Assembly: GCF_004323185.1 (NCBI RefSeq) | Contig: NZ_NAPS01000001.1 | Coordinates: 420,865 to 480,874 of the forward strand | Length of the DNA stretch: 60,010 nucleotides | Direction of reading: 5' to 3' | Source: Westiellopsis prolifica IICB1 | GTDB taxonomy: Bacteria > Cyanobacteriota > Cyanobacteriia > Cyanobacteriales > Nostocaceae | Shown here: positions 8,501-10,740 of the stretch, piece by piece | Numbering within the stretch: the stretch's first letter is position 1 | Layout: the number at the start of each line of letters is the position of its first letter | Notes under the pieces: generated by a model | What the model was told of the DNA's origin: nothing | Databases searched by the model: none | Seen by the model: the letters and a program-made list of their open reading frames with translations, nothing else | Program-made: the position numbers and the translations under genes

Positions 8501-8882
8501 TGGGGGTGGAGGGACTTGAACCCTCACGACCTTTTACGGTCAACGGATTTTCATTCTCCCGCAGTTTTCACTACTGCCTAGTAGACTAGCTACTTGTGGC
8601 TTTGAGAATTGGACTCTCCCTTTACCCTCGACTTAACGTTAGGGTAGCTCCCGTCGGGTCTCTGCACCTTCCGAATAAGTTCTTTGTTATTTATCACTTG
8701 TCTTTTGTTATTCAACAATTGACCAATGACAAATGACAAATGACTGATTTGGCTTGGCTCAGGATTGCCTTGTCTGTTGCCAGATTTAGGTTTCCCTGAA
8801 TTTGAGAGCATTCACTTAAAGAGTTTCTTCTTTAAGGCTCAATTACTTAAGTCCGTAGCGTCTACCATTCCGCCACACCCCC
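8501..8882 (-). tRNA. trnL-UAA: tRNA-Leu(UAA), interrupted by a group I intron
   Basis: The 5' exon is 8882-8849 (34 nt; acceptor GGGGGTG, D-arm GGCGGAATGGTAGACGC, anticodon stem ACGGA, ending with U34). The 3' exon is 8551-8501 (51 nt; AAAATCCGT, variable arm, T-arm GGTTCAAGTCC, acceptor CACCCCC and discriminator A). The anticodon stem pairs ACGGA/TCCGT perfectly only after the intron is removed, which restores UAA. The spliced tRNA is 85 nt, normal for the long-variable-arm leucine class. CCA is not encoded. The intron position between U34 and A35 is the one conserved in cyanobacteria and chloroplasts. Confidence 0.97.
8552..8848 (-). ncRNA. Group I intron of tRNA-Leu(UAA)
   Basis: A 297-nt self-splicing-type intron. 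On the minus strand it starts AAGTAATTGAGCC and ends in the omega-G of GGGAGAATG. Core elements match the Anabaena intron: CAGGGAAACCTAAATCTGG (P3/P4 side), GGCAATCCTGAGCCAAGCC (P4-P6) and GGAAGGTGCAGAGACCCGAC (P7). A large part of the region between P6 and the conserved GGAAGGTGCAG is a P6b-like extension made of degenerate GTCATTT/GTTATTT heptamers (about 8694-8746), which is why it is longer than the 249-nt Anabaena intron. There is no homing endonuclease ORF. Confidence 0.95.
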
Positions 8883-9757: not shown

Positions 9758-10149
9758 CTAATGACCAGCCCCAGCAATTTTGGCAAGGCATAGAACAATT
9801 TAATGCTGGGGAATTCTATGCCTGTCATGATACTTTAGAGGCTTTGTGGATGGAAGCAACAGAGCCAGAAAAAACTTTTTATCAGGGAATTTTACAAATA
9901 GCTGTAGCCCTGTATCATTTGGGTAATAGTAATTGGCGAGGTGCGGCGATTTTGTTAGGAGAAGGTAGCAACCGCCTGCGACGTTATCCATCAGTTTATG
10001 GTGGCATAGATGTAGATGAGTTATTAGAACATAGCGCTGCGTTATTGAGAACATTACAACATACAGAACCAGAGAAACTAGCCACAATGAAATTGGGTGA
10101 TGAGTCAGCATTGCCTTTACCCAAGATAGTACTAGGGACTGAAGATTAA
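9754..10149 (+). CDS. DUF309 domain protein
   Basis: A 131-residue all-helical protein of the DUF309 family. The signature is FNAGEFYACHDTLEALWMEA (about residues 15-34), followed by FYQGILQIAVALYHLGNSNW and GGIDVDELLEH. The conserved His-Asp and Glu residues in the first helix pair suggest a metal or ligand site, but the family has no established function. The start is the ATG at 9754, just after a dispersed repeat that may have replaced the original leader. Confidence 0.9.
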   Translation: MTNDQPQQFWQGIEQFNAGEFYACHDTLEALWMEATEPEKTFYQGILQIAVALYHLGNSNWRGAAILLGEGSNRLRRYPSVYGGIDVDELLEHSAALLRTLQHTEPEKLATMKLGDESALPLPKIVLGTED

Positions 10150-10170
10150 CTTAGGTTTGATGGATTTGAT

Positions 10171-10443
10171 TAGCCCAAGATGTCGCCCTCAAATAAATAG
10201 CTGGCTCATAGCCAAAACCCGCTGAAAGTCGGGTCAACTACCTACACTGACGTGTAGGCTTGAAAGAACCAGATTTCAACGCAAGAGATGACTAGCCCAT
10301 GAGACTTGTTTTGCTACGGACTTCCGAATGTTTCCCTAGTTCGGATTATTTCCAAGCCTACTGGTTGTAGGCGCTTGTAGAAAGGACATGCTGAACAAAT
10401 TGGGCTAAGGGACTTATTACTTTTTCTCGTGAGGATTATCTCC
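10171..10443 (+). ncRNA. HEARO / omega-RNA-like structured RNA
   Basis: About 270 nt of non-coding sequence immediately before an IscB-type start codon, the position of HEARO (omega) RNA. Visible helices are CCCG/CGGG (10218-10233), CCTACAC-TGAC-GTGTAGG (10241-10258), TCCGAA/TTCGGA (10323-10345), GCCTAC-TGGTT-GTAGGC (10356-10372) and a long-range TAGCCCA (10293-10299)/TGGGCTA (10401-10407) that encloses the last two. Such RNAs guide IscB to DNA with a guide at their 5' end. Here the protein is broken, so the RNA would need another partner. No covariance test was possible. Confidence 0.7.
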
Positions 10444-10632
10444 ATGCAACGAGTACCAGTATTAGACAAGAACGGCACACCACTCATGCCAACCAAACCT
10501 AGTCGGGCTAGGCGTTGGCTAAAAGAAGGTAAAGCCAAAGTTGTACACAACGACCTTAATGTTTTTTGTATTCAGCTATTAGTGGAACCATCTGAAAGAT
10601 TATGGTGTGGGACTCCTTGCGGATCTAGTTGA
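10444..10632 (+). pseudogene. IscB/RRXRR-family protein, N-terminal PLMP fragment
   Basis: A 62-residue reading frame, MQRVPVLDKNGTPLMP then TKPSRARRWLKEGKAKVVH, matching the N-terminal PLMP domain of IscB and IsrB-type RNA-guided proteins (annotated RRXRR in cyanobacteria). Family members are several hundred residues long and continue into a RuvC motif of the type GIDPGK; here the match stops after LLVEPS and the frame ends with LWCGTPCGSS. RuvC, the bridge helix and HNH are missing downstream in all frames I read, so this is an internal-deletion relic. Confidence 0.75.
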
Positions 10633-10740
10633 ACCAGTTAAGCCCCTTTGGGGCAGAACAAATATTGCGTAGTGCAGCTTTAGCTCACGTAGCAATATCA
10701 GTTCGCAATCCTGGTTTTTTCAAAGCCAGGAGAGTTCAAC
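10628..10740 (+). repeat. Multi-hairpin right end (IS200/IS605-like)
   Basis: GTTGAAC (10628-10634) pairs with GTTCAAC (10734-10740) and encloses three hairpins: GCCCC-TTT-GGGGC (10642-10654), an imperfect ATTGC...GCAAT stem (10664-10696) and CCTGG...CCAGG (10710-10730). The end, an AATC-hairpin-GAG-GTTCAA arrangement, resembles the right ends of TnpB elements where the guide RNA scaffold stops. No IS605 subterminal match could be tested. Confidence 0.6.

What the first reader, a model, noticed from the sequence alone, without database searches (positions are those of the whole stretch)
10171..10632. IscB-family relic with an apparently well-kept omega-RNA/HEARO leader
The sequence shows a PLMP-domain start (MQRVPVLDKNGTPLMP) that stops after about 50 recognisable residues, directly preceded by about 270 nt with five helices, including a long-range one. 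The protein is broken while the RNA part keeps its stems. An RNA that outlives its nuclease could be maintained for another IscB copy acting in trans, or could have been co-opted.
Basis: partly seen in the sequence, partly recalled or inferred. Interest (0 to 1): 0.75.

Follow-up and report, generated by a model that had tools for sequence, protein, structure and literature searches.

The report
Gutted IsrB transposon keeping its guide RNA
A cyanobacterial jumping gene has lost almost all of its RNA-guided nickase but still carries an intact guide RNA, most likely because the loss is recent, while a related element elsewhere in the same genome belongs to a lineage that lives on as guide RNA alone.

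Summary
Window 10233-10632 is an internally deleted transposon with both outer ends: omega-RNA (10233-10443), about 50 codons of nuclease (10444-10594), a deletion of about 1,050 bp, then the right end abutting TTGA. The lost protein was IsrB (RuvC, no HNH), not IscB. A covariance model from 15 intact IsrB loci scores the relic 219 bits (training members 193-238); 43 of 45 pairs stand. Rfam HEARO gives 37 bits (cut-off 83).

That state does not show that the RNA is maintained. The protein stump is equally well kept (dN/dS 0.04-0.23 against nine relatives), and six genomes examined, two of the same genus, lack the insert there. A recent deletion explains both. Broken copies arose repeatedly (at least 5 changes forced on the tree).

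The same genome carries a 330-bp protein-free omega-RNA element of a clade sampled in 16 Nostocaceae genomes. Its RNA covaries (33 of 92 pairs, 12 copies), near-identical copies sit at unrelated sites, and 13 of 16 hosts hold an intact IsrB; three do not. Stand-alone omega-RNAs are, by recall, already known.

The parts
10147..10232 (+). Copy of dispersed intergenic repeat A forming the 5' flank; its 3' end is a small hairpin
   Evidence: 36 matches in own genome, this one included (40 of 52 candidates scored); other copies end AAACCCACTTNAAGTGGGTT(G/A)A or close to it
10213..10232 (+). Inferred 20-nt guide segment of the omega-RNA (sequence just upstream of the left end)
   Evidence: Inference from DtIsrB, whose omega-RNA is a 20-nt guide plus a scaffold (PMC9581776, passages); no transcript data
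10233..10443 (+). Left end plus omega-RNA scaffold as modelled, 211 nt, starts GTCAACTACC
   Evidence: R1 model 219.2 bits, positions 1-223 of 223; 43 of 45 pairs; Rfam HEARO 37.4 bits at 10233-10420
10426..10453 (+). Terminal hairpin of the omega-RNA, CTCGT paired with ACGAG, reaching into the first codons of the stump
   Evidence: RNA folding; intact loci carry CTCGT/ACGAG (L096) or the compensated CACGA/TCGTG (L023, L072, L073, L076)
10444..10594 (+). IsrB N-terminal stump (PLMP domain, about 50 codons)
   Evidence: PF14239 3.3e-13; up to 93% aa identity to IsrB loci; the open frame runs on to TGA at 10630-10632
10594..10595 (+). Deletion junction; about 1,051 bp missing relative to full-length elements
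   Evidence: Start codon to right end is 182 bp here, 1,188-1,279 bp in ten intact relatives and 1,233 bp in five of them: L069, L072, L073, L076, L077; alignment
10595..10628 (+). Remnant of the element's right end (right arm of the terminal hairpin, ...GGGACTCCTTGCGGATCTAG)
   Evidence: 18 relatives align here; similarity stops at 10632-10634 in 17 of them and at 10637 in L058, with unrelated sequence beyond
10629..10632 (+). TTGA abutting the right end: target/TAM-like motif
   Evidence: Present in those 18 right ends, which were picked because their alignment reaches this far; DtIsrB TAM is NTGA/TTGA (PMC9581776, passages)
10629..10739 (+). Copy of dispersed repeat B forming the 3' flank, lacking the first part of B
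   Evidence: 4 matches in own genome, this one included; the three copies read begin GGTCGAGGCG..., absent here

Best explanation
This is a non-autonomous deletion derivative of an IsrB-type (OMEGA) transposon. A full-length element of about 1.46 kb (GTCAACTA left end, omega-RNA, IsrB gene, hairpin right end) stood 5' of a TTGA site between a DUF309 gene and an lptA-like gene, and lost about 1.05 kb between codon 50 and the right-end hairpin. Both outer ends and the omega-RNA remain. It makes no nickase. The omega-RNA could in principle still be transcribed and bound by an IsrB in trans, but its good state is most simply a sign that the deletion is recent. Shown: ends, deletion, IsrB identity, RNA structure, absence in the relatives examined, undecayed stump. 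Inferred: guide position, past mobility by a Y1 (IS200/605-type) transposase, recency of the deletion, present inactivity.
For: Ends: GTCAACTA left end in 23 of 34 oriented loci, the relic included, with differing flanks; 18 relatives share the right end and lose similarity just after TTGA. Full-length relatives have the right end 1,188-1,279 bp after the start codon, the relic 182 bp. IsrB: intact relatives are about 365 aa; the three IsrB proteins scanned match RRXRR and no HNH, own IscB L009 matches both; best solved structure for the L096 protein is DtIsrB 8dmb, E 3.7e-54 over residues 2-360. RNA: 219 bits, 43 of 45 pairs. Recency: DUF309 and lptA-like genes sit together without the element in 6 of 6 genomes examined, two of the same genus at 90-96% identity; stump dN/dS 0.04-0.23 against nine relatives over 44 codons, and 1 of 46 codons unique among 27 other loci. 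Repeated origin: broken loci need 10 changes on the omega-RNA tree, at least 5 forced; G004 and G010 carry derivatives with other breakpoints. Four Y1 transposase matches in own genome.
Against: The deletion cannot be dated: 44-46 codons give little power, and codons 2-4 also form the RNA's last hairpin, so they are not free of RNA constraint. Relic and the G010 derivative share the closest RNA (94% of 210 aligned bases) and nearby breakpoints, so a shared deleted ancestor with later small deletions is not excluded; against that, their stumps differ by 18 synonymous and 6 non-synonymous changes. The stump is closest to L077 by synonymous distance while the RNA is closest to L058 and L096, so the element may be a recombinant, which weakens pairwise dating. 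The flanks are not one clean target: repeat A on one side, truncated repeat B on the other. The third same-genus relative seen, G109, was not examined at this place.
Confidence: 0.8

Rival explanations
1. The relic's omega-RNA is maintained by selection because an IsrB encoded elsewhere (own L013, 367 aa) uses it in trans.
For: RNA intact; an intact IsrB exists in the genome; a protein-free clade shows RNA-only selection is possible.
Against: Stump equally conserved; insert absent from the 6 genomes examined; no second copy found in own genome (3 of 27 candidates scored, 150 of 1,217 scored); L013's own omega-RNA is distant (110.9 bits against 219.2 with the same model).
Confidence: 0.12
2. 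The 62-aa open frame, a near-complete PLMP domain, is itself a functional peptide that binds the 3' hairpins of omega-RNA.
For: The PLMP domain contacts SL7/SL8 of the omega-RNA (PMC9581776, passages); two other derivatives keep 51-aa and 85-aa frames with the same N-terminus.
Against: Further derivatives keep only 19-24 residues or none (L079, L078; L028); the last 12 residues here are junction and right-end sequence; conservation predates the deletion.
Confidence: 0.05
3. Pure genomic debris: neither movable nor functional. This overlaps with the best explanation and differs only in denying any remaining mobility.
For: Left arm of the right-end hairpin is lost; no second copy found in own genome.
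Against: Both outermost ends and the omega-RNA are intact; a protein-free relative was inserted cleanly in this same genome.
Confidence: 0.35

Closest known systems
IsrB/omega-RNA (OMEGA) elements, e.g. DtIsrB (PDB 8dmb; PMC9581776, passages seen)
   Same: PLMP N-terminus, omega-RNA immediately 5' of the gene, TTGA/NTGA motif at the element edge; full-length relatives are about 365 aa without HNH
   Different: The relic lacks RuvC, bridge helix and TAM-interacting domain; its modelled scaffold is 211 nt against 262 nt in DtIsrB
HEARO RNA, Rfam RF02033
   Same: Match over the whole model, positions 1-211
   Different: 37.4 bits, below the gathering score of 83; an intact own-genome locus (L014/L110) scores as low, 36.1 bits
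MITE-like deletion derivatives of insertion sequences
   Same: Internal deletion with both ends kept, needs a transposase in trans
   Different: Carries an omega-RNA; no copy amplification seen for this relic
Stand-alone omega-RNAs acting with IscB in trans (Ktedonobacter racemifer, Altae-Tran et al. 2021: recalled, paper not held)
   Same: omega-RNA without an adjacent nuclease
   Different: Here IsrB type, in Nostocaceae; the relic still has a protein stump

Membership tests
IsrB | PLMP/RRXRR N-terminal domain | tested here: met
   PF14239 E 3.3e-13 on the stump; up to 93% identity to IsrB loci
IsrB | RuvC without HNH, about 350 aa | tested here: not met
   Absent in the relic (deleted). Met in intact relatives, so the relic is a remnant of an IsrB gene, not a working IsrB
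omega-RNA / HEARO RF02033 | Covariance-model match | tested here: inconclusive
   Rfam 37.4 bits under the gathering score of 83; subfamily model 219.2 bits
omega-RNA / HEARO RF02033 | Conserved, covarying helices shared with omega-RNAs of intact nucleases | tested here: met
   26 of 45 pairs covary in 15 intact loci; relic 43 of 45 paired
IsrB-type transposon (IS200/605-like ends) | Defined left and right ends next to a TTGA/NTGA site | tested here: met
IsrB-type transposon (IS200/605-like ends) | Movement by a Y1 transposase | not testable with these tools
   Four Y1_Tnp matches in own genome; no assay possible
Protein-free omega-RNA clade (as L109) | Falls in the protein-free clade on the omega-RNA tree | tested here: not met
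   The relic lies among 31 rows (100/100), all 19 protein-free rows among the other 33 (100/100)
Protein-free omega-RNA clade (as L109) | Several near-identical dispersed copies | tested here: not met
   One copy of the relic found in own genome; this feature is itself seen only in G073

The most novel reading that the evidence does not exclude
Nostocaceae host a lineage of transposons that gave up their nuclease once and now consist only of a covarying omega-RNA plus ends (about 330 bp; the start codon reads ATT in 11 of 12 aligned copies, yet the terminal hairpin is kept). They spread in copies and borrow IsrB made by other elements, so that the IsrB nickase is a public good parasitised by RNA-only elements. 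Relics such as the one in this window are fresh, independent first steps on that road, here with a guide taken from a dispersed repeat.
Probability: 0.35. Interest if true: 0.7.

Novelty: new member of a known kind. Interest (0 to 1): 0.42.

Why it matters
On its own the relic is an ordinary deletion derivative, and it warns against reading an intact guide RNA as evidence of co-option: the stump test shows the coding remnant is just as fresh. The follow-up matters more. A protein-free omega-RNA clade with strong covariation, near-identical dispersed copies and clean empty sites makes a question testable: can guide RNAs of OMEGA systems live as transposons of their own, using another element's nickase?

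Tried and rejected
IscB identity: rejected, since full-length relatives lack HNH and the one tested matches DtIsrB.

A single nuclease-less clade containing the relic: rejected, since broken loci are scattered on the tree and an intact locus, L096, is a near relative (90% over 342 bases).

TnpB 3' end for 10629-10739: considered, rejected, because the three copies read (two in own genome, one in G039) lie between other genes; no TnpB frame was recognised by eye.

Repeats A and B as halves of one element split by the relic: not borne out in the copies read, where A and B do not adjoin.

IsrB-type omega-RNAs in G073 without an ORF within 1.5 kb were first counted as orphans. Four of them (L144, L147, L150, L152) proved to have a group II intron and IsrB coding sequence beyond it and were withdrawn. 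L160 shows the same junction and L157 another one; neither was followed.

The 3' stem of the protein-free elements was at first taken for new; one search shows a counterpart in elements with a nuclease, so that claim is withdrawn.

Guide target in own genome: the 22-letter pattern has 3 matches: the locus itself (1 mismatch) and two repeat-A copies (3 mismatches each); none is perfect; reversed control 0.

Limits: the 19 protein-free rows came from searches with the own copy L109 and with R1, so clade unity is partly an effect of sampling; its branch (93/97) falls just short of the tool's star (95/80). The relic sits in an unresolved fork; the smallest starred set holding it has 29 rows (17 intact, 12 broken). 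'Broken' also includes frameshifted frames (L024, L059), and four intact rows on a long branch (L061, L062, L064, L065) fall among the broken ones, which affects the count of changes. The 13-of-16 IsrB count against 64 of 217 in the family (Fisher p 1.3e-5) is not corrected for relatedness. G117 (one contig), G154 and G136 carry the element without an intact IsrB.

Full report
What was checked. The window lies at G000:C1:420865-480874 of a 7.3-Mb, 29-contig genome. It is a Nostocaceae-like cyanobacterium, judged from named relatives (Scytonema, Calothrix, Nostoc and others). The frame from 10444 begins MQRVPVLDKNGTPLMP and ends at TGA 10630-10632. Pfam RRXRR matches residues 4-51 at 3.3e-13. 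Rfam HEARO matches 10233-10420 at 37.4 bits, E 4.6e-6 in 751 bases, below the gathering score of 83; the other three hits of that search have E 3.6-9.8. The whole-genome HEARO search listed 11 matches and missed this one.

Anatomy. Alignment with relatives shows an element with both outer ends. The left end GTCAACTACC at 10233 recurs in 23 of 34 oriented loci, the relic included, each with a different upstream flank. Of the other 11, L041 starts TTCAACTA, five start GTCAATAAC or GTCAACAAC, L079's left end lies further upstream and the rest were not resolved. At the right end 18 relatives align through ...GGGACTCC..TAG|TTGA, and similarity stops at 10632-10634 in 17 of them and at 10637 in L058 (these rows were picked because their alignment reaches that far). 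TAGTTGA lies within 1.7 kb of the start codon in 22 of the 34 loci, once (L037) inside the gene, and in 12 it does not. From start codon to right end is 1,188-1,279 bp in ten intact relatives and 182 bp in the relic. The junction is at 10594/10595. The TTGA at the edge agrees with the TTGA/NTGA TAM of DtIsrB (PMC9581776, passages seen).

Which nuclease. Intact relatives encode about 365 aa. L096, L069 and own L013 match RRXRR and no HNH at E 0.01, whereas own IscB L009 matches both. The closest solved structure to the L096 protein is DtIsrB, 8dmb, E 3.7e-54 over residues 2-360. The relic is therefore an IsrB remnant.

Is the RNA well kept? A covariance model (R1) was built from 15 omega-RNAs of loci with an open IsrB frame, the relic not among them but its near relative L096 included; 26 of its 45 pairs are kept through changes on both sides in at least one sequence. 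The relic scores 219.2 bits against 192.7-238.1 for training members and keeps 43 of 45 pairs, training members 43-45. Intact loci outside the training set score lower: L074 196.0, L077 185.1, L073 180.4, L075 176.3, L036 164.4, L013 110.9, and four of another subgroup 57.8-61.7, some with long inserts. In the relic only the apical part of the first stem-loop is shortened. PMC9581776 reports that SL1 is not needed for nicking (passage); that the shortened stem is SL1 is my inference. The last hairpin runs into the gene: CTCGT 10426-10430 faces ACGAG 10449-10453, and intact loci show this pair or the compensated CACGA/TCGTG.

Is it kept because the RNA is needed? Three results say there is no need to assume so. 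First, the stump shows no relaxation: over 44 codons dN/dS is 0.04-0.23 against nine relatives (three of them broken themselves; the highest value is against L077, the nearest by synonymous distance), like nine pairs without the relic (0.04-0.19). Only 1 of 46 codons is unique to the relic among 27 other loci; 8 loci were dropped from that count as divergent or rearranged. Second, the DUF309-lptA intergenic region lacks the element in 6 of 6 genomes examined, two of the same genus; the third same-genus genome, G109, was not examined there. Third, no second copy was found in own genome, and among 217 family genomes the closest copies are 90% (L096, intact, 342 bases) and 87% (L058, broken, 371 bases) identical (three candidates scored per genome). 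A recent deletion explains an intact RNA and an intact stump alike. Against this reading: 44 codons cannot date the deletion, codons 2-4 are also part of the RNA hairpin, and RNA and stump have different nearest relatives (L058/L096 against L077), so recombination is likely.

Derivatives are common. G010 (420 bp) and G004 (553 bp) carry derivatives with both ends and other breakpoints; L078 (796 bp) and L031/L079 are longer rearranged copies; four genomes of genus g6 share a remnant of about 173 bp at one place. On a tree of 64 omega-RNAs the broken loci (16 rows) need 10 changes, at least 5 forced by well-supported branches.

The protein-free clade. Own genome also holds G000:C8:1244317-1244646 (L109), an IsrB-type omega-RNA with 45 of 45 pairs (as L008) and no nuclease match within 1.5 kb (as L120 and L145). 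Sister genomes G004 and G109 have the clean empty site: flanks up to L109:1315 and from L109:1649 lie 9 and 7 bases apart there. I collected 19 rows from 16 genomes: 16 of the 20 loci (own copy included; L132, L136, L138 and L139 carry IsrB sequence and were left out) and three G073 loci. In 17 of 19 there is no IsrB match within 1.5 kb; L129 has a broken IsrB neighbour and L123 is cut off by its contig end. The rows form one group (93/97; united in 95% of 200 bootstrap trees). In 12 of the 19 that I aligned whole, 33 of 92 pairs changed on both sides and 96.3% of cells pair; 0 of 500 shuffles reach the observed value on four of five measures and 2 of 500 on the fifth; slid controls give 2-7 such pairs (the structure was predicted from the same alignment, which favours it over the slid versions). 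In the core helices G-U cells outnumber A-C cells 55 to 6, so the + strand is the one under constraint; single-stranded DNA of that strand is not excluded. The start codon reads ATT in 11 of 12. In G073, 8 matches score alike; the 4 that I read are 99.4-100% identical over 352 bp at four unrelated sites. A full-length, open IsrB (E at most 1e-80) is present in 13 of the 16 hosts; 64 of 217 family genomes have a match at that level, a few with stops; Fisher p 1.3e-5, uncorrected for relatedness and for the way the 16 were found. Three hosts lack one, G117 being a single-contig genome, so present use in trans is not universal.

Other nuclease-less omega-RNAs in own genome: L106 (154.3 bits), L107 (140.1 bits) and L108 (45.2 bits) have no IscB/IsrB match in the stretches read, and L104 (31.8 bits) has only a 27-residue IscB fragment. 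L105 (30.1 bits) did not reach E 0.01.

Guide. The 20 bases before the left end are the 3' hairpin of repeat A, which has 36 matches in own genome, this one included. A search for the last 18 of these bases followed by NTGA, with up to 3 mismatches, finds the locus itself and two repeat-A copies with 3 mismatches.

Literature. Seen as passages: PMC9581776, PMC8730458, PMC8987985, PMC9755519; the rest as search listings. In some searches no listed title or abstract start describes protein-free IsrB omega-RNA elements, but the lists are capped and the library is partial. Altae-Tran 2021, Kapitonov 2016, Weinberg 2009 and Meers 2023 are not held. From recall, stand-alone omega-RNAs were reported in Ktedonobacter, so I file the finding as a new member of a known kind.

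Noticed in passing
L109:1318-1647 (G000:C8:1244317-1244646): Protein-free 330-bp omega-RNA element of the IsrB type, clean insertion relative to two sister genomes, member of a clade sampled in 16 genomes.
   Followed up: yes
L162, L164, L166, L168 (G073:C1): Protein-free omega-RNA elements, 352 bp, 99.4-100% identical at unrelated sites; an ATGGCTTACGCCACGCTACGCTATC insert sits inside one stem-loop.
   Followed up: partly
L170, L171, L172, L173 (G073): Group II introns (Rfam RF00029 in each of the four; reverse-transcriptase/HNH-like frames recognised by eye in L170 and L171) sit in the leader or N-terminus of IsrB genes, at the same spot ...AAGGATTA|GTGCG in three and within the coding start in L173; an apparent homing preference for omega-RNA/IsrB junctions.
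   Followed up: partly
L106, L107 (G000:C8:857883, 1235575): Two HEARO RNAs above the Rfam gathering score with no IscB match in the stretches read; L106 is followed by a right-end-like tail ending TCTTATGAC.
   Followed up: partly
window 10147-10232: Repeat A, a dispersed intergenic repeat with hairpins, 36 matches in own genome (this one included); also in G057, G060 and others.
   Followed up: partly
window 10629-10739: Repeat B, about 111 bp here, four matches in own genome (this one included) and copies in relatives; this copy lacks its first part, and why A and B meet exactly at the IsrB element is unexplained.
   Followed up: partly
window 8590-8858 (- strand): Group I intron, Rfam RF00028, 84.7 bits; host gene not examined.
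   Followed up: no
L032, L098, L099, L100: A remnant of about 173 bp holding the 5' part of the omega-RNA at the same place in four genomes of one genus, with 37-38 of 45 pairs left when aligned to the model.
   Followed up: no
window 10426-10453 and start regions of intact IsrB loci: The terminal omega-RNA hairpin overlaps the first codons of IsrB, with compensated versions CTCGT/ACGAG and CACGA/TCGTG.
   Followed up: partly
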